This document shows, one piece after another, positions 9,932 to 25,771 of a stretch of DNA of 31,436 bases (the first letter of the stretch is position 1; the number at the start of each line of letters is the position of its first letter). A program made the translations under genes and the position numbers. This stretch comes from a virus. Under the pieces are notes generated by a model, which was not told where the DNA came from, searched no databases, and was given only the letters and a program-made list of their open reading frames with translations. The stretch lies in IMG/VR virus record IMGVR_UViG_3300037587_000138, positions 1 to 31,436 of that record, one strand, 5' to 3'.

Positions 9932-11280
9932 TTATAGAACTCCTCTTCTTCAGGTGTGATCATTCCAGCCACGATTGACATCGTGGTGTGTGGATCATAC
10001 CCTACGGCAGACTTTTTGTCAACATAGCCTGGGTCTAGCGGGTATTGGTAGTGCATCCCAGTCCTATCCTCCAAGGAAGACATATCAGCGCCACACAACT
10101 CATAACCCTCAGGGGCTATCAGACAACCCCTCATCAACTCGCCGTAGGGCTTATCAATGCCGGGCAGGTTCAACACCACCTTGTGCTTAAACCTCAAGGT
10201 GTTGGTGAACCCCTGTATCTCGGCCCGTATATAGCCGTCTTCGTCTACGTTGTCCAGATATCCCTTAAGGATTCCTATGCGGTGGGTGAGGATTGAAAGT
10301 CCATTCAACACCTCCAGCTTAGGCTCTAGCTCAAACAAGGCCTTAACACTGTCACAAACCTCCCCCTTGATGTGCTCAGAGGCCACCTGAGGGATTGTTC
10401 GTACATCCCCTGTCTCTTTGTTACGGACATACTTAAGGTGTATAGGAACCCATCCCAGAGAGAACAGCCAGTCCTTGATTTGTGGGACAGACCCAGCATT
10501 GGGCTCTTTGTAGCTGTGTATGAAGTCTATATCTCCCCGGTAGCCAATAGGCTTTCCTTGAGACACACAGAACTCATCCCATTTAATGCCCGAGGCACTC
10601 TTGCTACGGTCCTTTTTGAGGGGCTTAGCTGGATAGCTCTTCACCTTCCACACAGGAACCTGAGGCATCACAGTACCTAGCTCCAGCTTCTTGCTGGCCT
10701 GTAGCTCTGTTAGCTCTATCAATCCTTCAGAGCACCTAACGACATCCAGCTTCCACCTAGAGGCTTCCTGCTCTCTTGCACAGTCCATCTTGAACATGAG
10801 GTAGTAGATGAACCTCCAGGCATCATCCTCTTCTTCGTACAGCTCCACAAGCTGAGCCCATTGCCTGTCCCAAAGGATTCGATTGATTTCTACATCACGA
10901 TGGCATCGTTCTTCATAATCTCCTTGTGTTTGATTCTCCCAATCTGTGATAACCACTTTGGGATAGCCAAATTCAACACCGTAGTCTTCTAGGCCGTGCT
11001 TGGGTCGCTTAGGTTCAAGATACCAAGACAGGGCCAACGTATCAACAAGAGTGGCCTCAATCTTAATTTCAAGTAGGTGCTCTAGATGTACAGCATCCCA
11101 TCGTATGAAGTTGTGGCCAATGATGATTACATCCTTACGAGAGAGGAGTTTCCTCATACTGTCGTAAGAGGCTGTAGTATGAATGGGAGTGTTGCCCACC
11201 TTGTTGGCTGACAAACACCACAGCTTAGTTGGTTGAAGCCCGTCCCCCTCCACATCTACAATGTAAAGGATTTTATCCAT
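9910..11280 (-). CDS. Family A DNA polymerase, N-terminal fragment (exonuclease and motif A)
   Basis: A 456-aa fragment with the 3'-5' proofreading domain first: Exo I D9-x-E11 (IVDVEGDG), Exo II GHNFIRWDAVHL, and Exo III RCHRDVEI. The thumb and palm follow, ending with motif A in LCGADMSSLEDR and the DPHTTMS block. It stops at TGA 9910 shortly after EEEEFYKWYK, before motif B. The missing fingers and motif C are in the gene at 8926-9495. The two products presumably associate to make an active enzyme, as reported for other phage proteins split by homing endonucleases. The ATG at 11280 is used, with AAGGAG 5 nt upstream; GTG 11283 is an alternative. Confidence 0.92.
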   Translation of the reverse strand: MDKILYIVDVEGDGLQPTKLWCLSANKVGNTPIHTTASYDSMRKLLSRKDVIIIGHNFIRWDAVHLEHLLEIKIEATLVDTLALSWYLEPKRPKHGLEDYGVEFGYPKVVITDWENQTQGDYEERCHRDVEINRILWDRQWAQLVELYEEEDDAWRFIYYLMFKMDCAREQEASRWKLDVVRCSEGLIELTELQASKKLELGTVMPQVPVWKVKSYPAKPLKKDRSKSASGIKWDEFCVSQGKPIGYRGDIDFIHSYKEPNAGSVPQIKDWLFSLGWVPIHLKYVRNKETGDVRTIPQVASEHIKGEVCDSVKALFELEPKLEVLNGLSILTHRIGILKGYLDNVDEDGYIRAEIQGFTNTLRFKHKVVLNLPGIDKPYGELMRGCLIAPEGYELCGADMSSLEDRTGMHYQYPLDPGYVDKKSAVGYDPHTTMSIVAGMITPEEEEFYKWYKQTH

Positions 11281-11534
11281 CACTTCTCCTTCAGTTCATA
11301 GTTATCTTCAAGCCAAGTGATAAACTGACCTACATGCCACTTACCCATGTGAGAGCAACCACCGGGGTAGTGCTCCCCAACAGTACCTTTCTCTTCATCG
11401 GCGATTGACATAAAGGCTGTAAAGAGTTTGTGGTTTAGCTCACTTACCATTCTAATCTCGTCAGGATGGCTTAGGCAGCTAGCAGGATGGCTTGCAGAGT
11501 ACCCCACTTTAACACTTTTGCTCGTATCTCCCAT
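11280..11534 (-). CDS. Small hypothetical protein (84 aa)
   Basis: An 84-aa protein without a recognised family. It has histidines and cysteines (ASHPASCLSHPDE, GEHYPGGCSHMGKWHVGQF) that could bind a metal, and a helix at the end (FITWLEDNYELKEK). The ATG at 11534 has GAGGAG 7 nt upstream; it overlaps the end of the metallophosphoesterase by 26 nt. Its TGA overlaps the polymerase start. Confidence 0.68.
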   Translation of the reverse strand: MGDTSKSVKVGYSASHPASCLSHPDEIRMVSELNHKLFTAFMSIADEEKGTVGEHYPGGCSHMGKWHVGQFITWLEDNYELKEK

Positions 11535-12024
11535 CTCTAATCTCCTCAAAATCTATTGGATACCCATCACAAGCCTCAACACACACATTGACATATCGCT
11601 TGTCAGCTTGGTGGTAATGATCCCTAATCGTGTTATGGTGTACGTGTCCATGAACGTTCTTACATTCACGAAGCTCCGCAGGGTGTACAGGGGCATGACT
11701 AAACCAATGCCCATGCTTCTTAAAGATTCCACGTACATCCTCAAATTGTGTTAGATATTCACCACACTGAAGCTCATCGTGGTTCCCTCGTACAAGGATT
11801 TTCCTCCCAGCCAATTGAGGCATGTATTCAAAGAACGCTGTCCTGCTGAAAGAGACATCCCCCAGCACGAACACTAAGTCCCGCTTGCCAACGACAAAGT
11901 TCCACTTGGCCACAAGGATGTTGTCATGCTCCTCCACAGTGGACCCTTCCCGGAGGGTGGGTGAAAACTGCAATATCTTCTTATGGCCGAAATGTAAATC
12001 TGAGATGCAATAGACTCTACTCAT
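11509..12024 (-). CDS. Calcineurin-like metallophosphoesterase
   Basis: A 171-aa single-domain enzyme with the complete two-metal motif set: DLHFGH (D9, H11), GDVSF (55-59), GNHDE (80-84), SHAP (109-112) and HGHVHH (125-130). The fold hydrolyses phosphomonoesters or diesters; the substrate cannot be read. The gene follows the Nampt homologue with an 8-nt overlap, so it may take part in nucleotide or NAD-related metabolism, but phage phosphoesterases of this size also act on nucleic acid or nucleotide signals. Confidence 0.88.
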   Translation of the reverse strand: MSRVYCISDLHFGHKKILQFSPTLREGSTVEEHDNILVAKWNFVVGKRDLVFVLGDVSFSRTAFFEYMPQLAGRKILVRGNHDELQCGEYLTQFEDVRGIFKKHGHWFSHAPVHPAELRECKNVHGHVHHNTIRDHYHQADKRYVNVCVEACDGYPIDFEEIRDGRYEQKC

Positions 12025-13510
12025 TCAACCTCCCACGAATCTCACTCAAAGTTGTCTCATTCAGCAGCTTGCCATCAAGGAACACAGTCTGTAAGGCTCC
12101 CTGAGCCTCCTGAGCCTTTGTTTGCTGATCATACAATACATACTCCCCACCCTCCTCTTCGACACGCAGGAGCCCTCTGGCGCTCTTCTTAGTGCCTGAG
12201 TCAGTGGCGGGGTCTTTAAAGATTTCACGACCAACACCATTCACCTCACCATACGTGGCCTTCATAGCAAACCCGAAGGTATCACGAGTGACGTATTGAT
12301 AAGTGTAGGAGCCAATGCCCAATACAACGTTACAGGACGCGAAGCCTTTAGCTTCAAGACGGGCCATAATCTCTTCACAGCGGTCAATTGTAATACTATC
12401 TCCGTAAATCAGTCCAATGTGTTCATCCAATACCTTGTAGTCCTTGTCCGTCACAGTACCACCGAAGGTGTCCCAGAGGCACTCTACAGCACCTTTATAC
12501 TCAGGGCTGTCAACCGGAGCATCGGTATCACCACAAATAATAAGAACAGGATCGCCAGAGTCAGGACGAATAACCACCTTCGATAAACCGAGGGCGTTGC
12601 GTTCTCGGGCAAGAATGTCATCTCGAAGAGCCGGTAGATACTCAGTGATGACCTTCCAGAAGTCCCATGTATCTGAGACGATGGAAACAATTCCTGCTGG
12701 GTATATTTCTTTGATAAGACGAGAGAACGTTCCAATCTCATCATCAACACCACCCATACACATAACGCTATGCTCAGTAGCAGGCACAGAACAACCAACA
12801 AGCTCTTTGTCACTATCAGCTCCATAATAGTCCTCCAAGTAGTCAATAGACGCTACGCTGTCAGTGCCCACGAAGGATGTCAGGTGTCCAGAGCCATTAG
12901 AGCCCACATCGTGCATACCTGATCCACCTCGGGAGGAGAAGTCGTGTCCCTGCAAAGGAACAAACTCAAGAGGGGAGCCTGTCTTATTTGCATACTCTGT
13001 CAATACTTTCTTATACTGATAGGCAGTGGTGGCTGTAGTAGTGGCCTTCCACACCTCAGCGGAGAATACAGTTTCCAGATAATTCACCAGCCAGAAGAAC
13101 TCAGCCAGAGTGTTCTGGATTGTGAACACTGGCACCTTCATGCCAACCCTGCTGCCCTCAGGCAGAGCCTTGACACAGATAGGCAGGTAGCCCAGATCGT
13201 GGAGAGCTTCAATATGCTCCATGTTAATGCTGTCAGCGCCTAGAGCGTTGTCCATACGACGCTTGTACTTGGCTACAGCCTTTTCCTTGGGAAGGTTGAA
13301 GAACCCTCCGTTCCACGTATCAAGCAAGAACCACTTCATGAAGCCTTGCAGGCCGTAGAAAACAACCTTGCCATCGAAGGAGGAGCCCATACTGGCTAAC
13401 CTATCGGAACGTGGGGTGAAGTTGGAGTACACCAGAGATGTGCCTGAAGGATACTGGCTTCTGTGGTCTGCTTTGTAGAAGTCGATACAATTAAGTGGAT
13501 TTAGTTTCAT
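12017..13510 (-). CDS. Nicotinamide phosphoribosyltransferase-like protein (Nampt/NadV homologue)
   Basis: A 497-aa full-length homologue of Nampt, which joins nicotinamide to PRPP to make NMN. Recognisable blocks are IDFYKADHRSQYP near the N-terminus, FVPLQGHDFSSRGGSGMHD in the middle, EHSVMCMGG, SDTWDFWKVI and VVIRPDSGDP. The start is the ATG at 13510, which overlaps the stop of the Prs homologue as ATGA, so the two are translationally coupled. In phages a Prs-like plus Nampt-like pair defines the NARP1 NAD+ reconstitution pathway, where the substrate is ADP-ribose pyrophosphate rather than PRPP; sequence alone does not decide between the two activities. No NMN adenylyltransferase was seen in the window. 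Confidence 0.93.
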   Translation of the reverse strand: MKLNPLNCIDFYKADHRSQYPSGTSLVYSNFTPRSDRLASMGSSFDGKVVFYGLQGFMKWFLLDTWNGGFFNLPKEKAVAKYKRRMDNALGADSINMEHIEALHDLGYLPICVKALPEGSRVGMKVPVFTIQNTLAEFFWLVNYLETVFSAEVWKATTTATTAYQYKKVLTEYANKTGSPLEFVPLQGHDFSSRGGSGMHDVGSNGSGHLTSFVGTDSVASIDYLEDYYGADSDKELVGCSVPATEHSVMCMGGVDDEIGTFSRLIKEIYPAGIVSIVSDTWDFWKVITEYLPALRDDILARERNALGLSKVVIRPDSGDPVLIICGDTDAPVDSPEYKGAVECLWDTFGGTVTDKDYKVLDEHIGLIYGDSITIDRCEEIMARLEAKGFASCNVVLGIGSYTYQYVTRDTFGFAMKATYGEVNGVGREIFKDPATDSGTKKSARGLLRVEEEGGEYVLYDQQTKAQEAQGALQTVFLDGKLLNETTLSEIRGRLNE

Positions 13511-14295
13511 GGTAAGGTCCAATCGTAGGTTGCTGTTACTTCGTCAATGAGGCCATCAAAAACCTCCTTGCCTTTAGAAAAGATTCCATGTGTTACATGG
13601 AGGTGGATGTGTTCGGCTCCAAGGCCCTTCAACACCTTGGCCAGCTCGATAAAGGTTCGTCCCCCATCACAGATGTCATCTACGATAACGACGTTCGGAC
13701 GGATGGAGTACATCCCGTCTACTTGTAGCTCTGTGTACAATATTTCCCCGGTGGCTACATCCCTTACTTTGGACGCCTGCACCACATCGTCACAGTGGTA
13801 TGATTTAGCAATGTCTAGGGTCTTCTTCATAGCCCCGGCATCAGGGCTCACAAGAGTGATGCCTTGGCGCAGCTTCGCCATCACGCTCATTGGGAGTAAA
13901 TCCTTTTGTGGAAGGGAGCTGCAATTATCAATACAAGCCACGCCAACATCGCTGTGAGCATCCGACACCAGCACAGAACAAAACCCCATGCTGTTAATCA
14001 AGTTGGCAAATACCTTCACCCCAATGGCCTCTCCTGATGCACAAGCTCGGTCCTGACGAGCATAGGGTAGGTACGACATGAGGAGCTTCTTCCTCAGGGG
14101 TTTTAGGAGTCTGTCAACAGTTTCATTGACAAGCAGGAGTGCCATCACATCGTCAGAGTTACGGATATCGGCCTTGATGGTGACATTATCACAATACTCG
14201 GGAGTTACATTAAGCTTCGTCTGTACCTCCCCTCCGGGGAATACAAACTGGCTCACATCAACTCCCCTCCCGGAGCCGTTATACACCTTAATCAT
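13507..14295 (-). CDS. Ribose-phosphate pyrophosphokinase-like protein (Prs homologue, possible Adps)
   Basis: A 262-aa member of the PRPP synthetase family, about 50 residues shorter than the bacterial enzyme. It keeps YLPYARQDR (75-83), the divalent-metal motif DAHSD (112-116), VSPDAGAMKK (149-158) and the PRPP-binding loop VVIVDDICDGGRTF (202-215). Prs transfers pyrophosphate from ATP to ribose 5-phosphate. In phage NAD+ reconstitution (NARP1) a homologue called Adps instead pyrophosphorylates ADP-ribose. Pairing with a Nampt homologue makes that plausible here. The ATG at 14295 has GGAGG 9 nt upstream; the longer frame starts inside the preceding gene. Confidence 0.9.
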   Translation of the reverse strand: MIKVYNGSGRGVDVSQFVFPGGEVQTKLNVTPEYCDNVTIKADIRNSDDVMALLLVNETVDRLLKPLRKKLLMSYLPYARQDRACASGEAIGVKVFANLINSMGFCSVLVSDAHSDVGVACIDNCSSLPQKDLLPMSVMAKLRQGITLVSPDAGAMKKTLDIAKSYHCDDVVQASKVRDVATGEILYTELQVDGMYSIRPNVVIVDDICDGGRTFIELAKVLKGLGAEHIHLHVTHGIFSKGKEVFDGLIDEVTATYDWTLP

Positions 14296-14455
14296 CCTCA
14301 ATAGCCTCCACAACCTTCTGTATGGCCTCCTGCCGGGTAGCGGCAGTGAAGCCTATGCATCGCATTGCCTCTGGGCTATCGCCCAGCCAGCACCAAGCAG
14401 AGGCTCCCTCAGAGCCAATGCTGTATTTATCAACCAACTCCTCAAGACTCTCCAT
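14288..14455 (-). CDS. Small hypothetical protein (55 aa)
   Basis: A 55-aa acidic protein beginning MESLEELVDKYSIGSEG and ending in the helix TRQEAIQKVVEAIEDD. The ATG at 14455 has GAGGA 7 nt upstream. It overlaps the preceding 55-aa gene by 14 nt and the Prs gene by 8 nt. The CWLGDSPEAMRCIGFTAAT centre has a strand-like pattern, typical of small phage proteins of unknown function. Confidence 0.62.
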   Translation of the reverse strand: MESLEELVDKYSIGSEGASAWCWLGDSPEAMRCIGFTAATRQEAIQKVVEAIEDD

Positions 14456-16295: not shown

Positions 16296-16607
16296 TCACT
16301 CCAATGTTATTGGCTTCTTCTCTTCGCAGAACTCCAAGTAATTGTCTACAAAGAACCAAGTTTGATATATATACCCACAATACTCACCACATTTAGTCCG
16401 GTAAGTGTATTCGTAGTCTTTAACAACCCGCTTAGACCGAAGCACAGCCCAATCCCTAATCTCCTTGAGGTCTTTAAGGGGTAGGCCATGGTGGATGGTC
16501 ATATTCAGTGGGATTGTACAAAACTTCTCGTCAGCCCCACCACCCTTCTCGTCTGTGTAAACACGGACAATGTGCTCCTTACCGGGCTTCACCACGTATG
16601 TGCTCAT
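16296..16607 (-). CDS. Hypothetical protein (103 aa)
   Basis: A 103-aa protein of unknown function with a beta-rich start (MSTYVVKPGKEHIVRVYTD) and an aromatic end with three cysteines (TKCGEYCGYIYQTWFFVD). The ATG at 16607 is the first with a plausible site (GGGGATT). It overlaps the gamma-glutamylcyclotransferase-like gene by 29 nt and lies 2 nt before the primase-helicase. It could belong to either neighbourhood. Confidence 0.68.
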   Translation of the reverse strand: MSTYVVKPGKEHIVRVYTDEKGGGADEKFCTIPLNMTIHHGLPLKDLKEIRDWAVLRSKRVVKDYEYTYRTKCGEYCGYIYQTWFFVDNYLEFCEEKKPITLE

Positions 16608-16965
16608 GCCAATCCCCGCAGCCAATCAATTCGTGACCGTCGTATTCGGCCCCCTCTAAGATATACATCTCTGCATCACCAAACTTTGTGGAGATGGTGG
16701 CCTTGTTATAGAAGTTGAAGTCAGCATCTTGCTCTCGGAAACCCTCAAGCCAATCCAAACTCTGGGCGATGCTTTCCTCCGTTACACGATAAACTTCAAC
16801 CAATACAGATTTATCACCTTGACGTACTCCGGGAAAACCCCCAAGTGAGAACATTTCCCACTCAGGGGCCAGGGCAGTTAGCCCCAGCTTTTCACTATCC
16901 CCAAGTACGCAGTTATTACCGAAGCCTTGACGTAAGGTTCCATACACTGCGACAAGCTTATCCAT
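16579..16965 (-). CDS. Gamma-glutamylcyclotransferase-like (AIG2/GGCT) protein
   Basis: A 128-aa protein of the GGCT/AIG2 fold. The N-terminus VAVYGTLRQGFGNN is the family's YGTL substrate loop, followed by FSLGGFPGV, VEVYRV and a LDWLEGF segment with the expected acidic residue. Family enzymes release 5-oxoproline from gamma-glutamyl amides. It directly follows the ATP-grasp gene with a TAATG junction and a GAGG site, which places it in the amide-ligase cluster. In known clusters of this kind a GGCT protein is thought to trim or process the peptide product. The actual substrate is unknown. Confidence 0.85.
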   Translation of the reverse strand: MDKLVAVYGTLRQGFGNNCVLGDSEKLGLTALAPEWEMFSLGGFPGVRQGDKSVLVEVYRVTEESIAQSLDWLEGFREQDADFNFYNKATISTKFGDAEMYILEGAEYDGHELIGCGDWHEHIRGEAR

Positions 16966-18869
16966 TAAACAGTTACCTCGTGGCGTTCATTACGAACGAC
17001 TGTTACTCGAACCTCTGCAGAGCGTCGCTCGTTAATCGAAGCAATCATTCGTTCAGGTAAGGTGAAGGGTACACCAGGTCGTCGAGAAGCGTTAGTCACA
17101 GTCCCAGGAATCCTGACCCGATAGCTGTGGAACTCTCCCCCTGCCTCACCAACAATCCTATCCACCTCAGCTTGGACACGCTCATAAGTGGTTAGTTGTC
17201 GTGGAGAGGGTGTAGAAAACCCTGCTGGCACGGAGGCGACAGCAGGAGCAATAGAAGGAGCAACAGGAGGGGCAATAGGAGGGGCAATAGGAGGGGCAAT
17301 AGGAGGAGCAATAGGGGCCTCTTCCACCAGCTCCAGCCATGAGGCTTGGTAGTTCCAGGACGCGTGCCTTATAGCCCGTCCTCCTTGACGGACATCAACA
17401 ACTACAAACTCCTGTCCGACCATATTATTTGTGTCTGGCACCCAACCATAACCGGAATATGTATCATCCCCATGCAGGTGTGTGGGCAGTACACGAACAC
17501 GCTGTCCCACTTCCACACGAGTAAGGGGTGTGGGTTGTGCTGGGGCAGTAAAACCAGCCACTTCGGTAGCATCTTCCAACCACTCAGGGAGATAAGACCA
17601 CTCTCCAACCGTCAACCAGCCGTTGTTAGTATTCAGGCTACGCACCATACCCTCTTCAATGCCCTCCATCCGAGAAAAATACCCAGGACCGGCGCCTCGA
17701 TTTTGGACAGAGCTGCGTGGACGAATCCGTACCCGTTGTCCAACAACAAACCCACCAACGTTCTCTACGGGGGGGGTTACAGAGACAGAGACAATACCTA
17801 AGGAGACGCCAGTTCTAGAAGAGTAAGAACCTCCTACGATGTAGATGCGATCCAATCGTGGGTCGCCGCCCAGGTTGTATCTAACCTCTCTTACAACAGC
17901 TACATGAGAGCCTGTAGACCACGTATCACCATCGTTCCGTACAATACGTGTGCCTACAGAGAATGGCTCAACAGGAGCAGCGAGGGGATCTACAGCAGGA
18001 GCAGAAGGGGCTTCTGCCACAACACCCATAGTCGGCTCCCACTGTGCAGGAGTTGCTCCCAACACCATTGCTGAGAAGGCAGCAGTGTAACGCTCAAGGG
18101 TGGTCCCCTCCAGCCCACAAGCTGTATTCACTTCCAGAACGGTTGCCTTGGAATCACGGTTGTTCCACACGATATCAACAGCACCGAAGGTGAGTCCCAG
18201 AGCTTGAACAGTGAGCTTAGCTTGCTCAAGGACAGAAGCATCGGGATTGACACCACCACGGACGAAGTTGAAGCCATTGCCGTGGTTACGGATCTGCCAA
18301 TTGACATCATCATCCCCAACCTCTGTACTCCGGGCCTTGCGCTGCACATCCGTCACAGTACCTCCCACTACATGAACACGATACTCGTCACGCTTACGGA
18401 CGTACATGGTGTACAGAGGAGCAGAAGGCACAGTGGGGACTTCATCATCCTCGCCACTAGGGGGCATGAGGAGTTCGATACCTTCTCCAGAGTGGCCAGC
18501 CAGAACATGGCGACAGACAACACCCTTGCCACTATTCAGCCACTCCTGAGCAACCGCTTGGTCAGTGGTGAAATCGGGGATGTTGATGCGGTCTCCTCCC
18601 AGAGACTCACTATCATCCAGGGCGTTACATTCAGAGACGTTTAGGAAAAACGCCAACTTATTACTTGCAGGTCGAATATCACGATTTAAAACATTGGCCT
18701 CAGAGAATCGAGACAGGTCTGTACGGGTGTTACCCCAATTGATGATGGTGAGGCCACGCCCATCCCTGGTGGTTGAGCCTTCAACTCGCATACGACGACA
18801 GCCCAGGGCTTCAGAAAGAGCACGGGCAGATGCAGATGCAGTGCGGTAAGGTAGAATAATAGTAGCCAT
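16965..18869 (-). CDS. ATP-grasp ligase with repeat-rich C-terminal extension
   Basis: A 634-aa protein. The first 300 or so residues fit an ATP-grasp ligase: an N-terminal Rossmann-like part (TIILPYRTASASARAL, IINWGNTR), then YRVHVVGGTV, a QRKAR segment, LTFGAVDIVWN and VLEVNTACGLEG, the metal- and ATP-binding end of the family. Such enzymes form amide bonds through acyl-phosphates. The next 270 residues hold about three copies of a small beta module (for example GTRIVRNDGDTWSTGSH, GQRVRIRPRSSVQ and GQRVRVLPTHLHG), which look like SH3/KOW-type repeats. An Ala-Pro-Pro-Ile linker and a basic C-terminal domain follow. Start ATG 18869 overlaps the upstream stop as TAATG. The long tail is unusual for the family and may hold substrate or dock on a phage structure. 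Confidence 0.85.
   Translation of the reverse strand: MATIILPYRTASASARALSEALGCRRMRVEGSTTRDGRGLTIINWGNTRTDLSRFSEANVLNRDIRPASNKLAFFLNVSECNALDDSESLGGDRINIPDFTTDQAVAQEWLNSGKGVVCRHVLAGHSGEGIELLMPPSGEDDEVPTVPSAPLYTMYVRKRDEYRVHVVGGTVTDVQRKARSTEVGDDDVNWQIRNHGNGFNFVRGGVNPDASVLEQAKLTVQALGLTFGAVDIVWNNRDSKATVLEVNTACGLEGTTLERYTAAFSAMVLGATPAQWEPTMGVVAEAPSAPAVDPLAAPVEPFSVGTRIVRNDGDTWSTGSHVAVVREVRYNLGGDPRLDRIYIVGGSYSSRTGVSLGIVSVSVTPPVENVGGFVVGQRVRIRPRSSVQNRGAGPGYFSRMEGIEEGMVRSLNTNNGWLTVGEWSYLPEWLEDATEVAGFTAPAQPTPLTRVEVGQRVRVLPTHLHGDDTYSGYGWVPDTNNMVGQEFVVVDVRQGGRAIRHASWNYQASWLELVEEAPIAPPIAPPIAPPIAPPVAPSIAPAVASVPAGFSTPSPRQLTTYERVQAEVDRIVGEAGGEFHSYRVRIPGTVTNASRRPGVPFTLPERMIASINERRSAEVRVTVVRNERHEVTV
17245..17316 (-). 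repeat. 12-bp tandem repeat coding for an APPI linker
   Basis: Six 12-bp units lie in phase within the ATP-grasp gene. Three are identical (GGGGCAATAGGA on the + strand, 17269-17304) and three are close variants (17245-17268 and 17305-17316). They code for a run of Ala-Pro-Pro-Ile on the minus strand, a flexible proline-rich linker before the C-terminal domain. Identical neighbouring copies suggest recent expansion by slippage, so copy number probably varies between related phages. Confidence 0.9.
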
Positions 18870-19102
18870 TAGATGGTTCCCCATTGACGTTTCATTAGTT
18901 CGATTTGTACAGCAGACATGGCGGAGCAAGCTACACACACTGGTCTAGGCAGGCCGTGCCAGTCATCCATCCATGTGATGTCTTTGTGTTCTGATGGTTC
19001 TATAAAAGAAGCGCAGTGTACGCATCCAGAGGCCACCATTCTTACAAACTGGGGCTTCGAGATGATTGCATTCATCGGTCCAAGGAACCCGTCCTGGGAC
19101 AC
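18869..19102 (-). CDS. Small zinc-ribbon protein, possibly fused to the amidotransferase by frameshift
   Basis: A 77-aa protein with two Cys pairs, CVHC and CVAC, separated by about 30 residues, a simple zinc-ribbon plan. The GTG at 19102 overlaps the stop of the amidotransferase gene (TAGTG), like many junctions here, but lacks a clear ribosome site. An ATG at 19075 is the alternative. The same frame can also be entered by a -1 shift at the A8-G run at 19114-19122 (see that feature), giving an amidotransferase-zinc-ribbon fusion. Function is unknown; it lies within the amide-ligase cluster and its stop overlaps the ATP-grasp start. Confidence 0.7.
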   Translation of the reverse strand: MSQDGFLGPMNAIISKPQFVRMVASGCVHCASFIEPSEHKDITWMDDWHGLPRPVCVACSAMSAVQIELMKRQWGTI

Positions 19103-20244
19103 TACGCTTGGTGCTTTTTTTTAGCGAGAGCCTCAACCTCAGCTTCCCGTCCTGCGTTGTTCGAGTCACCCTCGATTACGTCAGTGAGCTTAACGTCAGT
19201 GACAACCAAGTATTTCAGTTCGCCGGTGTCTGTGCCACAGGAGATTGTCCCTGTATAGAACCCAGCGAGAGCATCAGATTTGATCTGGTAGCACCGCACA
19301 TCAAGGCACTCACCCTCGGTGACGATACCATGCATTATCCCTGTATCCGAGACGGAGCTGTAAGGCACCACCCCGTCAGAGTAAAACTCAATCTTATCTC
19401 CCCTTTTAAATCCCCACCTCTCTAACGGGGCTGGCAGGGTTACAACCTTCTTCGAACTCTTAAGGGTGCCCTTTCGCGTACTGCCTCCTCCTTGGTGGTA
19501 GCCACCGTATCCACTACCACTGCCGTAGCCCCACTCAGAGTCCTGGACAGTGATGTCTCTCACCACAGGAAGAGAGATGGAGCCCTTTTCAAGAGCGATG
19601 GTAACCAACTTACCAGGAGCCAGCTCGATATAATCGACATCAGTGATGTTGTTACGGTCTAACACCATTTCCAACATCTTCCGCTCAGAGGCGTAGTATG
19701 TCACCTTACGGCCTTTATGATTGGCGAAGCACAGAGTTCGCTCATCGTTACGGACGATGTTGAAGGTTTTCTTGCCCTCGTCATACCAAGTGAGAGCAAA
19801 GGCTCCACGGAGGGTGGGGATTGTCTTCTCTGCTCCGTCTACATTGAATGCATTGGCAATACACTCAGAGTCTACAGCAAACGTTGCCCCGGCTGGCATG
19901 TAGTATTGACTGGTGAGTGTACCATTGTGACACAAGGTGATGTCACCGCGAGTGAAGGGGTGTGCCGTCTTAGTACTTACACCACCCTTGGTGGCATATC
20001 GGTTGTGAGCAAACATAACTGCTGTCATAATGCCGTTGTCCAGAATCGCCTCAGTCTTATCCAACTGGAGGAAATCAGGGCCATCAACTGCCTTCTTAAA
20101 GCTTTCAATACTCCCGTCAAACCCAACAGCAGCTAAGCCTGTTGAGTGGTGACCACGTAAACTATCAACGTAGATTAATTGTTTCAACACTTTGACATCT
20201 GGGAGGGAGATGCCTGACCCGAAAATCCCAACTAAGCCGCAAAT
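19102..20244 (-). CDS. Class II glutamine amidotransferase, apparent AUU start
   Basis: A 380-aa protein of the class II glutamine amidotransferase (Ntn) family. Reading from ATT at 20242-20244 gives M-C-G-L-V-G-I-F-G, the expected start, with the nucleophile at Cys2. Later motifs are RGHHSTGLAAVG, AHNRYATKG and CHNGTL, all characteristic of the glutaminase site. AGGAGG (20253-20258) lies 8 nt before ATT. Upstream in frame there is a TAG after only seven further codons and none of them is ATG, GTG or TTG. The first ordinary start (GTG 20190) would remove Cys2 and the first strand. The domain frees ammonia from glutamine for a ligase; partners are the amidoligase just upstream and the ATP-grasp protein downstream. 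The remaining C-terminal half is not recognised. Confidence 0.85.
   Translation of the reverse strand: MCGLVGIFGSGISLPDVKVLKQLIYVDSLRGHHSTGLAAVGFDGSIESFKKAVDGPDFLQLDKTEAILDNGIMTAVMFAHNRYATKGGVSTKTAHPFTRGDITLCHNGTLTSQYYMPAGATFAVDSECIANAFNVDGAEKTIPTLRGAFALTWYDEGKKTFNIVRNDERTLCFANHKGRKVTYYASERKMLEMVLDRNNITDVDYIELAPGKLVTIALEKGSISLPVVRDITVQDSEWGYGSGSGYGGYHQGGGSTRKGTLKSSKKVVTLPAPLERWGFKRGDKIEFYSDGVVPYSSVSDTGIMHGIVTEGECLDVRCYQIKSDALAGFYTGTISCGTDTGELKYLVVTDVKLTDVIEGDSNNAGREAEVEALAKKKHQA
19114..19122 (-). other. Possible -1 ribosomal frameshift site (A-AAA-AAG)
   Basis: Near the end of the amidotransferase gene the minus strand reads GCT AAA AAA AAG CAC. It contains the heptamer A-AAA-AAG used in dnaX frameshifting. 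GAGG lies about 8 nt upstream, where a stimulating Shine-Dalgarno site could act. A -1 shift continues GCA CCA AGC GTA GTG and runs without stop into the zinc-ribbon frame. Downstream, CCAGGA and TCCTTGG can form a short bulged stem, about 18 nt from the slip, rather far. Use is inferred, not shown. Confidence 0.5.
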
Positions 20245-20248
20245 TGCT

Positions 20249-21490
20249 TTATCCTCCTGACGTGTCTAACGTCTCTGAAAAGATTTCACCCAACCGGCCT
20301 ATGCCGTGTGGGCCAACATTAATATTAGTGTCATCACCGAAGGCTGCTTGGAGCACCCTCACGGCTTGACGGTAGCCAATACTTGAATCGGCTGGATTAA
20401 CCCGGATTCTCGGGTGATGGCTGCGCATATAATCCTGGGCTGCACCACTCAACCTCACCCTAGCCTCAGATTGAGAGGGGTTTGGTGGGGGTGGTTCTGT
20501 CGAAAAGGCGGGGATAGAGCTGTTGCGGATATTCATCATCGAAGGGTTATACCGTGAGGATGTCGTCAGAGCTTCTGCTTGTTGAGACACACCAAACGCC
20601 TCCAGCAAATCATATCCACCCTCACTCTCAGTGAGTTCCTCTCTGATACCCTCCAAACGTCCCCCAAACAATACATCCTCTGCCACCCAAGCACCACGAT
20701 AGACACGCTCTCGCACATCCTCTTCAATAACATCGGAGGTGAGGTCTCCAAAAATCTCACGAAGGAACCCACGAGGCTGCAACCTACTCATCAGGGCAGG
20801 CAAATCCTCGACAGAACCTCGATACTGCTTTGCATATTCATACAGAGACAGGAGGTGGTTTGTCCAGTTGATGATGCGAGGCACATCATAAGTGCCCTCC
20901 ATGCCTCGGAACTCTAGAGATCCAAAGTCTAGCAGGGCATTAATGTTCATGGCAGAGTATTTGGGTCTATGCTCCGATCCCAGCCTTAGGAGTTGTTGGA
21001 GTGTTCTCATACGAGCTAGGCTACGAATCTGCCCCTGTCCCTTCTCGTAGGATAGAGAATAGATATTGTGCTCCCTGCTATCTCCACATAGAGTGAACAG
21101 GTAGGGCTCGACAATGGTGTACAACACCATCATGTTCCACACCTGGGGGTATTCTAGATGACGAACATCAATGTGGACATGGACACTGGTGCGTTCGGAG
21201 CATAGTGGTGGGGAGGATAACCCCGCAACACTCTCTCCAAACCGCATCATGCGATTATAAAACTCAGCCCCGCCTGCGGGACCATCGAATACATATTCAA
21301 CCCCGCCATTACGCAGAGAGCCATCGGGTACAAGCCTCCACCCACTGGGTGTTGAAGGAGATGTCACTAGGTTGCCTATGCCCTCCAGCTCAACCTCAAT
21401 ACCTACACCGTTATTACCAACCACAGATGGGTGTAAGTCCCAAACTACACTGCCCTGGCCGTGGCCTAGGTCTTCACCGATGGTAGGCAT
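20249..21490 (-). CDS. Amidoligase (PF12224-type, glutamine synthetase-like fold)
   Basis: A 413-aa protein whose first 230 residues match the putative amidoligase family: VGIEVELEG, the metal-binding acids; RLVPDGSLRNGGVEYVF; RTSVHVHIDVRH, the His-rich strand; and later KYSAMNINALL and GSLEFRGMEGTYD. This family shares the fold of glutamine synthetase and glutamate-cysteine ligase and couples ATP use to amide bond formation. The C-terminal 180 residues are not recognised. GGAGG lies 8 nt before its ATG. It is followed 4 nt later by the amidotransferase, the likely ammonia donor or partner. Confidence 0.87.
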   Translation of the reverse strand: MPTIGEDLGHGQGSVVWDLHPSVVGNNGVGIEVELEGIGNLVTSPSTPSGWRLVPDGSLRNGGVEYVFDGPAGGAEFYNRMMRFGESVAGLSSPPLCSERTSVHVHIDVRHLEYPQVWNMMVLYTIVEPYLFTLCGDSREHNIYSLSYEKGQGQIRSLARMRTLQQLLRLGSEHRPKYSAMNINALLDFGSLEFRGMEGTYDVPRIINWTNHLLSLYEYAKQYRGSVEDLPALMSRLQPRGFLREIFGDLTSDVIEEDVRERVYRGAWVAEDVLFGGRLEGIREELTESEGGYDLLEAFGVSQQAEALTTSSRYNPSMMNIRNSSIPAFSTEPPPPNPSQSEARVRLSGAAQDYMRSHHPRIRVNPADSSIGYRQAVRVLQAAFGDDTNINVGPHGIGRLGEIFSETLDTSGG

Positions 21491-21491
21491 C

Positions 21492-22127
21492 TCATGCCCC
21501 TCCCAGTATTGTTGCCAGTGTAGACTCTAAGTGGGATGCTCTCTCATGAAGAACGCACTCTCCCTCCTTCACAACACCAACAATCGATTCTTTATAAACA
21601 ACCGTGGGATGCTTAATCTCAGGGTAAGCCATGATAGCCCAATCCCTATCAAAAGCCTGTGAATACCCACGGCCAGCTAACACGTGCTGAATACACGCTT
21701 CCAACGGTTCAAACGTCGGATTGAACAGAGCTAAGATATGGTTGCGAGAGGTGAAGCTGAAGGAAGACCGGCCTCTTCTGCGCCTCATGTGGTTTCCAAC
21801 AATCGCACTGGTGATTTGATGCTCACGTACACCACGCTTCCATTGACGTTGAGCATTCCTGCGATGGTATACAGCAAAATCTTCAAGATTCACCATACCC
21901 AGCTCAGGATAATCCCACTTCACCTCTGCCCCACTATGAAACGGCTTAAACTCAACGCTAGTCTCGGTCCTCATGTTTACGCCCATCAAAACTGGGCCAG
22001 CAGAGCGGTCCGAAGCACTCTCGATGTAAATCGGATCAAAGGTGCCACACCCTTCCAGCTTTACAGCCAGATATGTGTGACAATATGACGCCATTAGGTC
22101 ATCTGCACACATTATGGATCGTTCCAT
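21492..22127 (-). CDS. Conserved-looking unknown protein in the amide-ligase cluster
   Basis: A 211-aa protein without a recognised fold. It starts MERSIMCADDL; residues 10-60 look beta-rich, and the middle has a very basic patch (NHMRRRRGRSSFSF). The end is mixed helix and strand. The ATG at 22127 has GGAGG 8 nt upstream and overlaps the previous stop as TGATG; the next gene begins 1 nt after its stop. The tight placement among ligases suggests that it takes part in the same process, perhaps as a substrate carrier or modified protein. Confidence 0.72.
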   Translation of the reverse strand: MERSIMCADDLMASYCHTYLAVKLEGCGTFDPIYIESASDRSAGPVLMGVNMRTETSVEFKPFHSGAEVKWDYPELGMVNLEDFAVYHRRNAQRQWKRGVREHQITSAIVGNHMRRRRGRSSFSFTSRNHILALFNPTFEPLEACIQHVLAGRGYSQAFDRDWAIMAYPEIKHPTVVYKESIVGVVKEGECVLHERASHLESTLATILGGA

Positions 22128-22576
22128 CACTTCACCTCCAACGCTTCCAGACGCTTAGTGAGCTTTTCCATTTCAGCCCTTATCTCGTCACGCTCTTTCT
22201 CGGCAGGGGAGGGGCAGGGTTTGATACGAAAGTCGTATTTAACATTCCAGTCGGGGTATTCTCCCTCAATGAAGAACCAGCCACTACCACCATTACACTC
22301 AATCTCAGCCCCATCAGCCCACGCCTTAATCACCTCAGCGTGTTTATGGGGTGGGTTGGGGTAGATAGGGGGGACAAGTTCAAAAGAACGTTCACCAATA
22401 TAACCGTTAAAGGAGCCTGACTTGGTGTTGCCAACAGGAGGGCTTACTCTGTACCCAGGGCCATCATTGTACTTACCAACTTCAGTGATTACGACGAGGC
22501 TGTCTCTATCATTAAGATCACAACCAGACCCACTTACGACAACTCTCACCTTATCGCCAACTTTAAACTCTTTCAT
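22127..22576 (-). CDS. KOW/SH3-like protein with a phage W-rich domain and coiled tail
   Basis: A 149-aa protein in three parts. Residues 1-65 (FKVGDKVRVVVSGSG and following) look like a small SH3/KOW-type barrel, similar in style to the repeats in the ATP-grasp tail. Residues 75-120 (HKHAEVIKAWADGAEIEC to the YDFRIKPCP region) match a small domain found in many phage proteins of unknown role. The end is a charged helix (EIRAEMEKLTKRLEALEVK). It sits between the two ligase-type genes with TGATG junctions on both sides. Confidence 0.75.
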   Translation of the reverse strand: MKEFKVGDKVRVVVSGSGCDLNDRDSLVVITEVGKYNDGPGYRVSPPVGNTKSGSFNGYIGERSFELVPPIYPNPPHKHAEVIKAWADGAEIECNGGSGWFFIEGEYPDWNVKYDFRIKPCPSPAEKERDEIRAEMEKLTKRLEALEVK

Positions 22577-23373
22577 CACGCCACCTTCAGATTCAATGTG
22601 TCCACGATATGACGAGCTGCTGCCTCATCACCACTGTTGATTGTTTGTTGGACGAGAGAGCTAGGCACTTGCCCCAACATATACTCCAGCTCATCCAAAT
22701 GCTCAGCACCCCACTTGGCCCTGTCAAACACCCAAGCCTTCAGGCTATCACTCTTCAGCCAGAAGTTAGATAATGGACGATACTCCATGCCATAAGGTTT
22801 ATGGCGCATACTACCAGCACTGCCGTACAGAACCCTCCGACGAATGTCTCCGTCCAGGAGAATAGAGGGAACGCCAAGAACAATGTCAAGCATACGAGAC
22901 AAACCGTAATTACCATCATCCCAGGGGTCATCATAGCCCACATGAACGTGTCCTCCTGCTGTACGTAGCCCTGAGAGGGCACCATTTGGCTTCTGAAGGA
23001 TGTCCTCCGTCCACCCATCCCATTCTGTACCACAGCCAAATTCCATCGCCTTGGGGCCTTGAGAGCGCAGGAACTCCATTTGGAACTCATAGCTGCTCGT
23101 GATGCTTGGCTCCAACCCCTGAGGGATTAGGACGGCTTCAAGCTCTTCAAACACGGTGTTGATGTTCTCAACAAACTCAGAGACAGTGGAGGCAGGGTGG
23201 ATATTAAACTCCGCCATCACATTGTCCTCCTGAAGAGCCCCTTTGCGAACAGGGATGGGACGAGACTTGCTCCCACCCACCTTACCGATGGCACTCGTCA
23301 TAGTACCTTCGAGGGTTCTTACCATCACCTCGGGGTCTGCCCCGATAGTTATCTTTTCCAATGCTGGAAACAT
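22576..23373 (-). CDS. phiEco32-like COOH-NH2 ligase, type 2
   Basis: A 265-aa protein with the pattern of phage phiEco32-like COOH-NH2 ligases (Pfam PF14395): ITIGADPEVMV at the start, ALQEDNVMAEFNIHPA, the His-rich strand RTAGGHVHVGYDDPW, and a helical end. Like the PF12224 protein it should have the glutamine synthetase-like fold and join a carboxylate to an amine with ATP. Two such ligases in one operon suggest two successive bonds or two substrates. The ATG at 23373 has AAGGAGG 7 nt upstream; the frame upstream of it overlaps the previous gene and is rejected. Confidence 0.88.
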   Translation of the reverse strand: MFPALEKITIGADPEVMVRTLEGTMTSAIGKVGGSKSRPIPVRKGALQEDNVMAEFNIHPASTVSEFVENINTVFEELEAVLIPQGLEPSITSSYEFQMEFLRSQGPKAMEFGCGTEWDGWTEDILQKPNGALSGLRTAGGHVHVGYDDPWDDGNYGLSRMLDIVLGVPSILLDGDIRRRVLYGSAGSMRHKPYGMEYRPLSNFWLKSDSLKAWVFDRAKWGAEHLDELEYMLGQVPSSLVQQTINSGDEAAARHIVDTLNLKVA

Positions 23374-23374
23374 A

Positions 23375-24211
23375 TCAAGCCTCCTTGAGCTTGTTTTCAA
23401 ACCATTCAGCCGCTTTAACCAACATATTAATATCCATCTGGCGTTCCGAACCACGAAGGCTGCCAGTGCCACCCCTCACGCTAGGCCATAGCTCAGGGAA
23501 CTGTTCCCTAATCATGGTGTGACACATGGTGCGGTTCTCGTCATCAACACCCCCATGAGGTTGTGTCCAGCCCATGATGTAATTGGAGTCACCACGCTCA
23601 CCACGACAATAGGTGAGAACCTCCGAGTATAACCCCTGATCACCATGGTAGGCGGATGCCCAATCACTGCCAAACAACACATTGTGCAGAGAGATGGCAT
23701 CAGGCATACCCAACTCCATACGATTGACAATGCTGTGCTCGCAGTCGTAGCTGTCACAGAAGGTGATGCCGTCTGACCTATGCCCAACCACACCCAAGGC
23801 AATCGTAGCTGCAACCTTAGGCTCGATGTCTGCATCCGTCATCACAACAAACGCTCTAATGGCCTGTCTGTGGGTGTAAGGTACACGGAACAACGAGAGG
23901 ACATTCAACATACGATCAGCGGGGATGTCACAACGGACATGCACCTCTTGATTGTTATTCGAACGCTCATAGACGATTGGCTCCGACAACGAACCCTGGA
24001 TGACGGGGAGGCTTTCAAGGAAACGTGCCCACACCTTCCAATCACGGGTATCACTCCATCTACGAGCATGGAAGACCACCTTGTTCGTTCGGACTACACT
24101 ATCCATGTCGTTGTACTCACACAACATACCGAAGCACGGAGCATCGGTCTGGCTTCTAACAGACTCTCCACCGTTCCTGTTGGTGTAATGAACATCAAAA
24201 TCTACAGGCAT
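23375..24211 (-). CDS. First gene of the amide-ligase cluster, unknown (278 aa)
   Basis: A 278-aa protein of unrecognised family. It starts with a strand-rich part (MPVDFDVHYTNRNGGESV), has VVFHARRWSDTRDWKVW, a HVRCDIPADRMLNVLSLFR region, and a long mixed C-terminal half with several histidines. It begins the operon after a 220-bp AT-rich gap, with AGAGGA 7 nt before the ATG. Its stop lies 1 nt before the COOH-NH2 ligase start. Position suggests a cluster-specific enzyme or substrate protein. Confidence 0.75.
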   Translation of the reverse strand: MPVDFDVHYTNRNGGESVRSQTDAPCFGMLCEYNDMDSVVRTNKVVFHARRWSDTRDWKVWARFLESLPVIQGSLSEPIVYERSNNNQEVHVRCDIPADRMLNVLSLFRVPYTHRQAIRAFVVMTDADIEPKVAATIALGVVGHRSDGITFCDSYDCEHSIVNRMELGMPDAISLHNVLFGSDWASAYHGDQGLYSEVLTYCRGERGDSNYIMGWTQPHGGVDDENRTMCHTMIREQFPELWPSVRGGTGSLRGSERQMDINMLVKAAEWFENKLKEA

Positions 24212-24867: not shown

Positions 24868-24888
24868 CTCGATGAGAGTAAAGCCTTT
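24868..24888 (-). pseudogene. Relic of the prepilin gene start
   Basis: The 21 bp at 24868-24888 are identical to 25907-25927, the part of the prepilin-like gene coding for KGFTLIE. On the minus strand the SPFH gene ends ATGAAATAA and the repeat follows immediately. The living gene reads ATGAAATGTAACAAAGG, so the relic looks like the same start with five bases missing. It is out of frame and reaches TAG at once. Only this short stretch is left. Confidence 0.7.
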
Positions 24889-25771
24889 ATTTCATATTCA
24901 TCAGAACATTCGTACCATCACCCAGCATTGTCTGGGGCATAACACCGTTCCAGAGCAGTTTGGCTTCAGCTTCTTTCAACTTGATGAGGGCAGGGGTGAC
25001 ACTACGTGCCAGAGCCTTGTTACCTTCAGCCACCTTCGTGATACGGTAGAGTTCGGCATCAGCAGCCTTCTTTACAGCAGAGGCGTTAAAAGAGGCAGAG
25101 TCGTCAGCAGCTTTAGCGATAGCTGTCAGCTTTGCAGCCTTCAACTTCTCAATCTCAAGGGCAGACTGTTGCTTAACTACCTTCTCCTGCTCCGTCACAG
25201 CCGCTTTAACAGCCGCTACAATGGTAGGCGGTAGGTTGATGTCCTTAATGAGGATATCCGTCACTGTGTAGCCTGTGAGGGCGTCGTTCAACCGGTTGAT
25301 GCCCTCAATCCGCATCTTCTCGATAGTGGTTTCATTGTAGAAGTCAGAGCTTTCAACAGCTATAGCCTTACCAACATCCACCATAATCGAGGGTACACGA
25401 GGGAACAACTGGTTGTTGATGTAACCCTTGGCAGAGCCGAACTGCTTACGGACATTGGCGGTGGAGCCGGGGGTAAACTTACCGATCACCGTGACGTCCA
25501 TGCTGGTACGCAGCTTGTCTTGAGAGGGGATGGGCATGTTATCCCAAGAATAACTAACTTCTTGAACATCGTAAACCTCAAAATCAGCCAGGGGGTTGAC
25601 GATGTGGAAGCCGGACTTCAGTTCCTGCGGGTTAACCTTCCCGAAGACAGCGCCAACCTTCTCGTCACCCACCTTAACGGTGGTATAGGAGTTGAGGCCG
25701 ATAGCGAGAGTTGTGATGCCAACAATGGCAGCGATGGCGATATGTTTAATAGTACGGGCGGGGTTTTGCAT
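24887..25771 (-). CDS. SPFH (prohibitin/stomatin-like) membrane protein
   Basis: A 294-aa protein. An N-terminal membrane anchor (IAIAAIVGITTLAIGL, about 11-26) precedes an SPFH/band 7 domain: VGAVFGKVNPQELKSGFHIVNPLADFEVYDV, then MDVTVIGKF and later DILIKDINLPP. A long Ala/Lys/Glu coiled coil follows (VTEQEKVVKQQSALEIEKL region). SPFH proteins form ring-like membrane scaffolds and regulate proteases or membrane domains. Phage copies are occasional; T4-type phages have other membrane exclusion proteins. It has AAGGA before the ATG, lies 3 nt after the prepilin-like gene, and its 3' end seems rebuilt from a piece of that gene. Confidence 0.9.
   Translation of the reverse strand: MQNPARTIKHIAIAAIVGITTLAIGLNSYTTVKVGDEKVGAVFGKVNPQELKSGFHIVNPLADFEVYDVQEVSYSWDNMPIPSQDKLRTSMDVTVIGKFTPGSTANVRKQFGSAKGYINNQLFPRVPSIMVDVGKAIAVESSDFYNETTIEKMRIEGINRLNDALTGYTVTDILIKDINLPPTIVAAVKAAVTEQEKVVKQQSALEIEKLKAAKLTAIAKAADDSASFNASAVKKAADAELYRITKVAEGNKALARSVTPALIKLKEAEAKLLWNGVMPQTMLGDGTNVLMNMK

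What the first reader, a model, noticed from the sequence alone, without database searches (positions are those of the whole stretch)
16579..24211. A phage amide-ligase cluster with two different COOH-NH2 ligases, an ATP-grasp enzyme, a glutamine amidotransferase and a GGCT-like enzyme
Seen: nine close-set genes in one direction, including a PF14395-type ligase (22576-23373), a PF12224-type amidoligase (20249-21490), a class II glutaminase (19102-20244), an ATP-grasp protein (16965-18869) and a gamma-glutamylcyclotransferase-like protein (16579-16965). Known: clusters joining these families in phages such as phiEco32 have been predicted from genomics to make peptide or amide modifications. Inferred: two ligases plus an ATP-grasp enzyme mean at least two bond-forming steps, with ammonia from glutamine and trimming by the GGCT. 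Three members (23375-24211, 22127-22576, 21492-22127) are uncharacterised and could be the carrier or target. The product and its purpose, perhaps capsid, cell wall or defence evasion, are unknown.
Basis: partly seen in the sequence, partly recalled or inferred. Interest (0 to 1): 0.88.

Follow-up and report, generated by a model that had tools for sequence, protein, structure and literature searches.

The report
Known phage amide-bond enzyme cluster
A phage fragment carries a known but biochemically untested set of enzymes for building and trimming glutamate-type amide bonds; across dozens of unrelated phages the set always includes one of two unrelated enzymes that cut gamma-glutamyl bonds, which gives a concrete, testable idea of the chemistry.

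Summary
In detail: 16579-24211 (minus strand) encodes a PF14395 ligase, a PF12224 amidoligase, a class II glutaminase, an ATP-grasp ligase and a GGACT enzyme, all with intact catalytic residues. It is not new as a kind. The same genes, in the same order before the primase/helicase, occur in UFV-P2, PaP3 and phiEco32 and are published. What I add: (1) in 52 of 53 independent, fully covered loci the four core enzymes occur together, always with GGACT and/or a C26 gamma-glutamyl hydrolase, never with neither, so a gamma-glutamyl-cleaving step looks obligatory; (2) the PF14395 model has the YbdK/glutamate-cysteine ligase/glutamine synthetase fold (Z 14.8); (3) in PaP3 these are published middle genes, which argues against a virion role; (4) the 77-codon ORF 18869-19102 is the glutaminase's zinc-ribbon domain, displaced to the -1 frame behind an A_AAA_AAG slippery site (candidate programmed frameshift); (5) the glutaminase starts with ATT; (6) the 212-residue protein between the ligases is a widespread partner with no solved relative. 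Best mechanism: a middle-phase pathway that makes a gamma-glutamyl amide and later removes the gamma-glutamyl group. Substrate and product remain unknown.

The parts
23375..24211 (-). U278: 278-aa protein of unknown fold, directly upstream of the PF14395 ligase in about 10 locus clusters of the window's own branch only
   Evidence: family at -0.7 to -1.0 kb from PF14395, 28 members, 10 clusters; no Pfam match
22576..23373 (-). PF14395 COOH-NH2 ligase, GS/GCS fold
   Evidence: Pfam 47.0 vs 25 bits; AF2 pLDDT 94.6, best match YbdK Z 14.8, rmsd 3.3, 221 aligned; D13, E15, E55, H142, H144, R179, R190, E197, R199 conserved
22127..22579 (-). U150: accessory small protein, fast evolving, not part of the core module
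   Evidence: 54% identity to sister L002; relatives at unrelated positions in L031, L090, L117
21492..22130 (-). U212: core partner of unknown function between the two ligases (phrog_11055/phrog_4877)
   Evidence: AF2 pLDDT 82, pTM 0.80; no PDB match better than E 0.3, SH3/Sm-like N-terminus at Z about 4 only; phage-only structural relatives incl. CW02, E 1e-10
20249..21490 (-). PF12224 Amidoligase_2
   Evidence: 24.7 vs 22 bits; phrog_7469 3.5e-47; E32, E34, E65, H104, H106, E193, R195 conserved
20253..20258 (-). Shine-Dalgarno AGGAGG for the ATT-started glutaminase
19102..20244 (-). Class II glutamine amidotransferase, ATT start codon (20242-20244), catalytic Cys2
   Evidence: C2, R82, N107, G108, D125 in 90 of 90 cluster representatives
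19114..19120 (-). A_AAA_AAG slippery heptamer in the glutaminase frame, 9 nt before its TAG stop (19102-19104); candidate -1 frameshift site
   Evidence: the only AAAAAAG in the window on either strand; conserved in L002
19078..19100 (-). Possible hairpin (GTCC-C-AGGA / TCCT-T-GGAC) 13 nt after the slippery site; only loop bases differ in L002
18869..19102 (-). Zinc-ribbon (GCxxC...CxxC) ORF in the -1 frame, homologous to the C-terminal domain of the glutaminase in relatives
   Evidence: phmmer L022 E 2.1e-6, L017 4.2e-5, L018 3.1e-4; alignments of C-termini; in-frame CxxC...CxxC in 45 of 89 clusters
16965..18869 (-). ATP-grasp ligase (residues 1-290) with a proline-rich C-terminal extension of about 365 aa, the longest of 116 homologues
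   Evidence: phrog_2599 3.5e-74 on residues 1-273; K71, E162, R164, K178, D232, E246, N248 in 89 of 89; extension lengths
16579..16965 (-). GGACT (gamma-glutamylamine cyclotransferase family, PF06094)
   Evidence: 58.3 vs 22.8 bits; YGxL and catalytic-type Glu in 65 of 65
16296..16625 (-). Small unknown protein between GGACT and the primase/helicase; a relative was found only in the sister L002

Best explanation
The genes encode one pathway, expressed in the middle phase of infection, that forms and then removes gamma-glutamyl amide bonds. Shown from sequence or structure: the glutaminase, two GS-type ligases, the ATP-grasp ligase and GGACT have intact active sites; they are inherited as a set; and every complete set has at least one enzyme of a family known to cleave gamma-glutamyl bonds (GGACT or C26). 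Inferred: the glutaminase releases ammonia and glutamate from glutamine; PF14395 and PF12224 use ATP to activate a glutamate gamma-carboxylate and join it to an amine or ammonia; the ATP-grasp enzyme adds an amino acid to a carboxylate, as RimK-type enzymes do; and GGACT or C26 takes the gamma-glutamyl group off again as 5-oxoproline or glutamate. That would be a protect, modify, deprotect logic like butirosin synthesis (BtrJ/BtrG) or putrescine breakdown (PuuA/PuuD). The 212-residue protein would be a non-catalytic partner of the ligases. The end product is more likely a modification of a host target, or a small molecule, than of the virion; its identity is not known.
For: Co-occurrence: 52 of 53 independent fully covered locus clusters have PF14395, PF12224, GAT-II and ATP-grasp, with GGACT only (21), C26 only (12) or both (19), never neither, in about 20 different gene orders and always on one strand, so content is kept while order is not. 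Only 5 of 84,980 species genomes gave a PF14395 hit, all in MAGs, and 0 of 72,556 plasmid records. Key catalytic residues of all six enzyme families are 97-100% conserved; the five families present in the window keep them. The PF14395 model matches YbdK (Z 14.8), plant GCL (13.7), GS (13.4), Dop (13.3) and PafA (12.7), which from established enzymology act on glutamate gamma-carboxylates. C26 homologues keep Cys-His-Glu (C84, H180, E182), and PA11's copy weakly matches PuuD (PRK11366) and gamma-glutamyl-CDP-amidate hydrolase. The ATP-grasp weakly matches MptN and RimK-type alpha-L-glutamate ligases. PaP3 ORF32-48, which hold the module, DNA polymerase and primase/helicase, peak at 10-30 min (PMC4707531).
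Against: I found no measured activity for any member. GGACT and C26 could act on other gamma-glutamyl compounds such as glutathione, or C26 could be a class I glutaminase. Order of steps, amine acceptor and product are not determined by sequence. The locus sample was seeded mostly by PF14395 (some loci by PF12224 or C26), so it says nothing about phages that have lost PF14395; L044-L049 were chosen for C26.
Confidence: 0.55

Rival explanations
1. GGACT/C26 are not a step of the pathway but recycle or destroy host gamma-glutamyl compounds (for example glutathione), to feed glutamate or 5-oxoproline into it or to disarm the host.
For: GGACT often lies at the far end of the cluster or outside the ligase block, and its position varies.
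Against: The cleavers are on the same strand in every locus where seen (65 GGACT, 49 C26 clusters) and one of two unrelated families is always kept, which fits a dedicated step better.
Confidence: 0.2
2. The pathway modifies the host cell wall or envelope to exclude other phages, as proposed for phiEco32 by Iyer et al. 2009 (quoted in PMC10580990; the original could not be read here).
For: Published proposal; amide and ATP-grasp ligases act in peptidoglycan synthesis (established knowledge). Compatible with the best explanation: it names a target, not a chemistry.
Against: The module is found in phages of Pseudomonas, Escherichia, Klebsiella, Vibrio, Salinivibrio, Sinorhizobium and in a crAss-like phage, whose host envelopes differ; no secreted or membrane partner is universal.
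Confidence: 0.25
3. The module modifies a phage capsid or other virion protein.
For: Peptide-tag ligases are known for proteins (RimK and S6, PafA and Pup; established knowledge).
Against: Published middle, not late, timing in PaP3; the cluster lies with replication genes; no structural gene travels with it.
Confidence: 0.07
4. The module builds an amino-acid or amine hypermodification of phage DNA bases.
For: Neighbour of primase/helicase and polymerase in many phages.
Against: The window's thymidylate synthase is ThyX-type (PF02511), not a ThyA-like hydroxymethylase, and no hydroxymethyl-pyrimidine kinase or transferase appeared among the proteins scanned; not every window ORF was scanned and the window is incomplete.
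Confidence: 0.06

Closest known systems
phiEco32-type COOH-NH2 ligase cluster (phiEco32 gp77-gp86; PaP3 orf42-48; UFV-P2 ORF21-29)
   Same: Same enzyme families in the same order, PF14395 - ~200 aa unknown - PF12224 - GAT-II - ATP-grasp - GGACT, before the primase/helicase (PMC3890496)
   Different: Window has the zinc ribbon in the -1 frame, a 365-aa ATP-grasp extension and an inserted U150 gene; its PF14395 is under 60% identical to every phage record (best rows 43-46%)
Zobellviridae variant (PA11, CVT22, Klyazma)
   Same: Same four core enzymes and the ~200 aa partner
   Different: C26 gamma-glutamyl hydrolase in place of GGACT
YbdK / glutamate-cysteine ligase / glutamine synthetase / PafA-Dop superfamily
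   Same: Fold of the PF14395 protein, Z 12.7-14.8
   Different: 9-15% identity; substrate unknown; no credible solved relative by sequence
Gamma-glutamyl protect/deprotect pathways: butirosin BtrJ/BtrG, putrescine PuuA/PuuD (own knowledge)
   Same: ATP-dependent gamma-glutamyl ligation paired with a GGACT-type or C26-type remover
   Different: Works-like comparison only, no sequence-level membership; the phage set adds GAT-II and a second GS-type ligase
E. coli dnaX -1 frameshift (own knowledge)
   Same: A_AAA_AAG in the zero frame, early stop in one frame, possible downstream hairpin
   Different: Here the shift would add a domain rather than shorten the protein; hairpin spacing of 13 nt is long; no experiment

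Membership tests
phiEco32-type amide-ligase cluster | PF14395, PF12224, GAT-II, ATP-grasp and a GGACT on one strand in one gene run | tested here: met
phiEco32-type amide-ligase cluster | intact catalytic residues in each enzyme | tested here: met
phiEco32-type amide-ligase cluster | forms an amide or peptide product | not testable with these tools
   no biochemistry; none found in the literature held
PF14395 COOH-NH2_lig | above the curated cut-off and GS/GCS fold | tested here: met
   47.0 vs 25 bits; YbdK Z 14.8, rmsd 3.3, 221 aligned
PF12224 Amidoligase_2 | above the curated cut-off with E-x-E, H-x-H and E-x-R residues | tested here: met
   24.7 vs 22 bits; residues
GGACT PF06094 | above cut-off with YGxL and catalytic Glu | tested here: met
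   58.3 vs 22.8 bits; E in 65 of 65
GlmS (the name carried by phrog_4736 and public annotations) | above the GlmS equivalog cut-off | tested here: not met
   TIGR01135 38.9 vs 418 bits, only residues 2-214; a glutaminase domain without the GlmS isomerase half
R2K ATP-grasp clade | above the Pfam R2K cut-offs | tested here: not met
   R2K_3 14.5 vs 26.3, R2K_2 12.1 vs 26.2 bits
RimK family alpha-L-glutamate ligase | above the curated cut-off | tested here: not met
   TIGR00768 19.8 vs 143.4 bits; resemblance only
LysW-type carrier protein (considered for the zinc-ribbon ORF) | small zinc ribbon with an acidic C-terminal EDWGE-like acceptor motif | tested here: not met
   two CxxC pairs present but the C-terminus reads KRQWGTI; it is a GAT-II domain in relatives
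dnaX-type -1 programmed frameshift | slippery heptamer in the zero frame, open -1 frame encoding a conserved domain | tested here: met
   conserved in L002
dnaX-type -1 programmed frameshift | stimulatory hairpin and upstream Shine-Dalgarno | tested here: inconclusive
   hairpin stem kept in L002, but the two sequences are about 90% identical there and spacing is 13 nt; GAGG repeats upstream, not tested further
dnaX-type -1 programmed frameshift | a frameshifted fusion protein is made | not testable with these tools
   needs a reporter or mass spectrometry

The most novel reading that the evidence does not exclude
The module is a phage-borne gamma-glutamyl protecting-group pathway: a gamma-glutamylated amine intermediate is made by GS-fold ligases, used to build an amide modification during middle infection, and its gamma-glutamyl group is obligatorily removed by either of two unrelated enzymes (GGACT or C26), with the dosage of the glutaminase/zinc-ribbon fusion set in this phage by an ATT start and a -1 frameshift.
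Probability: 0.3. Interest if true: 0.75.

Novelty: new member of a known kind. Interest (0 to 1): 0.48.

Why it matters
The cluster has been predicted since 2009, sits in hundreds of phage records (317 with a PF14395 match), including Escherichia, Pseudomonas and Klebsiella phages and a human-gut crAss-like phage, and I found no report of its product. That one of two unrelated gamma-glutamyl-cleaving enzymes is always kept narrows the chemistry to something that can be looked for directly: a gamma-glutamyl intermediate (+129 Da on a protein, or a gamma-glutamyl metabolite) in the middle phase of infection.

Tried and rejected
Zinc-ribbon ORF as a LysW-like carrier: rejected, it is the C-terminal domain of the glutaminase in relatives and lacks an acidic C-terminus. 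'The zinc ribbon is universal': rejected, 44 of 89 clusters have no in-frame CxxC...CxxC, and the closest marine relatives (L055-L079) have none downstream either. Similarity of U150 to the ATP-grasp C-terminal extension: no support. Hfq/Sm-like identity of the U212 N-terminus: only Z about 4, not claimed; Foldseek against the PDB gave nothing better than E 0.3. Sequence relatives in the PDB for PF14395, PF12224 and U212: none credible. A universal carrier or target gene in the neighbourhood: none found in an all-against-all clustering of 3,020 ORFs. Near-identical phage genome in the phage collection: none. Purifying selection on the zinc-ribbon ORF between window and L002: not decided (omega 0.63, but dS unusually low). 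A strict primase/helicase profile found that gene in 28 of 95 clusters, looser single-linkage clustering in 62; I rely on the stricter count. The primary paper (Iyer et al. 2009, PMC3268129) is not held.
Full report
WHAT IS THERE. The window is an incomplete linear virus record of 31,436 bases. The stretch 16579-24211 on the minus strand holds nine closely packed ORFs. Pfam places four of them above the curated cut-off: GGACT PF06094, GATase_6 PF13522, Amidoligase_2 PF12224 and COOH-NH2_lig PF14395; the ATP-grasp protein is recognised by phrog_2599 at 3.5e-74.

IT IS A KNOWN CLUSTER. The same genes in the same order stand before the primase/helicase in UFV-P2, PaP3 and phiEco32. UFV-P2's amidoligase, glutamine amidotransferase and ATP-grasp genes were published in 2014 (PMC3890496) and similar genes in Pa11virus in 2018 (PMC6209634). 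A 2023 paper cites Iyer et al. 2009 for the idea that they modify the cell wall to block superinfection (PMC10580990). I could not read the 2009 paper. I found no experimental work on the product.

HOW TIGHTLY IT TRAVELS. I collected 127 loci with a PF14395 gene, which fall into 95 clusters at 80% PF14395 identity. Among 53 clusters with at least 6.5 kb on both sides, 52 have PF12224, GAT-II and ATP-grasp as well. The one exception is a Neisseriaceae metagenome contig (L054, 27% identity). Partners are always on the same strand, in about 20 gene orders. PF14395 gave 5 hits among 84,980 bacterial and archaeal species genomes and none in 72,556 plasmids, so it is essentially a phage family at the sensitivity of these scans.

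AN OBLIGATORY GAMMA-GLUTAMYL CLEAVER. PA11 and GP100 lack GGACT but carry a peptidase C26 gene (PF07722, E 1e-16 to 1e-19). Across the 52 complete clusters GGACT alone is seen in 21, C26 alone in 12, both in 19, neither in none. C26 keeps its Cys-His-Glu residues (47 of 48, 47 of 47, 47 of 47) and GGACT its Glu (65 of 65). These are unrelated folds whose known members cleave gamma-glutamyl bonds (established knowledge: BtrG and human GGACT; PuuD and gamma-glutamyl hydrolase). Six of the loci (L044-L049) were picked for their C26 gene; the others were not.

ACTIVE SITES AND FOLD. In the cluster representatives (65-95 per family present in the window) the catalytic-type residues are invariant or nearly so, and the window has them all. 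The PF14395 model (pLDDT 94.6) matches YbdK, plant glutamate-cysteine ligase, glutamine synthetase, Dop and PafA at Z 12.7-14.8 over 175-225 residues.

THE UNKNOWN PROTEINS. The 212-residue protein (21492-22130) is the only unknown that is widespread: it lies between the ligases in most loci. Its model (pLDDT 82, pTM 0.80) has no PDB match and only phage relatives in BFVD, among them the protein at the same place in CW02. Motifs such as RQWRRG/RQYRQS recur. The 278-residue protein (23375-24211) is confined to the window's own branch. The 150-residue protein (22127-22579) is accessory.

A SPLIT GLUTAMINASE. The ORF 18869-19102 matches the C-terminal zinc ribbon of the glutaminase in L022, L017 and L018. 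In the window it lies in the -1 frame. The junction carries A_AAA_AAG (19120-19114) in the glutaminase frame, 9 nt before its TAG stop; it is the only AAAAAAG in the window. The sister contig L002 keeps heptamer, stop and hairpin stem although the two codons just before the AAA AAG pair changed from GCT AAA to TCT GAA, and synonymous changes are few around the junction. Restart at the overlapping GTG (TAGTG) is the alternative; there is no Shine-Dalgarno sequence close to it. A second phage, L084, has an A8 run at the same junction with the ribbon-like ORF in the +1 frame, which a -1 shift does not explain. I regard a programmed -1 frameshift as likely (about 0.6) but unproven.

AN ATT START. 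Catalytic Cys2 fixes the start of the glutaminase at ATT (20244), behind AGGAGG; no ATG, GTG or TTG lies between the upstream stop and Cys2. phiEco32 (annotated from that codon), BUCT695, L082 and L127 also have ATT there, Klyazma ATC, and the sister L002 CTG. This suggests that glutaminase expression is kept low in several lineages (inference).

TIMING. Microarrays of PaP3 infection class ORF32-48 as middle genes peaking at 10-30 min (PMC4707531); the module is ORF42-48. This argues against a virion target and fits host takeover or replication-phase chemistry.

MECHANISM, AND WHAT IS SHOWN OR INFERRED. Shown by sequence: set inheritance, intact sites, GS/GCS fold of PF14395, alternative cleavers. 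Inferred: gamma-carboxylate activation by the two GS-type ligases, ammonia supply by the glutaminase, amino-acid addition by the ATP-grasp enzyme, removal of gamma-glutamate at the end. Unknown: acceptor, product, purpose.

VERDICT. Ordinary as a discovery (a new member of a known cluster), more interesting as a clue: the always-present gamma-glutamyl cleaver makes a long-open question directly testable. Interest 0.48.

Noticed in passing
window 12017-14313: Overlapping NAMPT-like (12017-13522) and PRPP-synthetase-like (13507-14313) genes beside the cluster; from own knowledge this pair resembles the phage NAD+-reconstitution (NARP1) genes Namat and Adps, a counter-defence system.
   Followed up: no
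window 19078-19122: A_AAA_AAG slippery site, early stop and possible hairpin between the glutaminase and its displaced zinc-ribbon domain.
   Followed up: partly
L084 (GAT-II C-terminus): An A8 run at the same glutaminase/ribbon junction, but with the ribbon-like ORF in the +1 rather than the -1 frame; slippage in transcription or an assembly error could explain it.
   Followed up: partly
window 20242-20244; L034, L040, L046, L082, L127, L002: Recurrent non-AUG starts (ATT, ATC, CTG) of the class II glutaminase in several phage lineages; gene callers that miss them will truncate the protein and drop the catalytic cysteine.
   Followed up: partly
window 16965-18000: The ATP-grasp C-terminal extension (about 365 aa, proline-rich) is the longest of 116 homologues and evolves fast (omega 0.60 against 0.18 for the catalytic part).
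   Followed up: partly
window 8926-11283: Family A DNA polymerase appears split into two ORFs around an HNH_3/AP2 endonuclease ORF at 9422-9931, as with homing elements.
   Followed up: no
L049 (crAss-like phage cr108_1, record 69036-97656): A crAss-like gut phage carries the module with C26 next to its primase.
   Followed up: no
L054: A PF14395 relative in a 77-kb Neisseriaceae metagenome contig without any of the partner enzymes within 8.7 kb.
   Followed up: no
window 24887-25771: Band_7/SPFH protein upstream of the cluster, also found near it in UFV-P2, ZRK32, PJNS034 and TacPo2.
   Followed up: no
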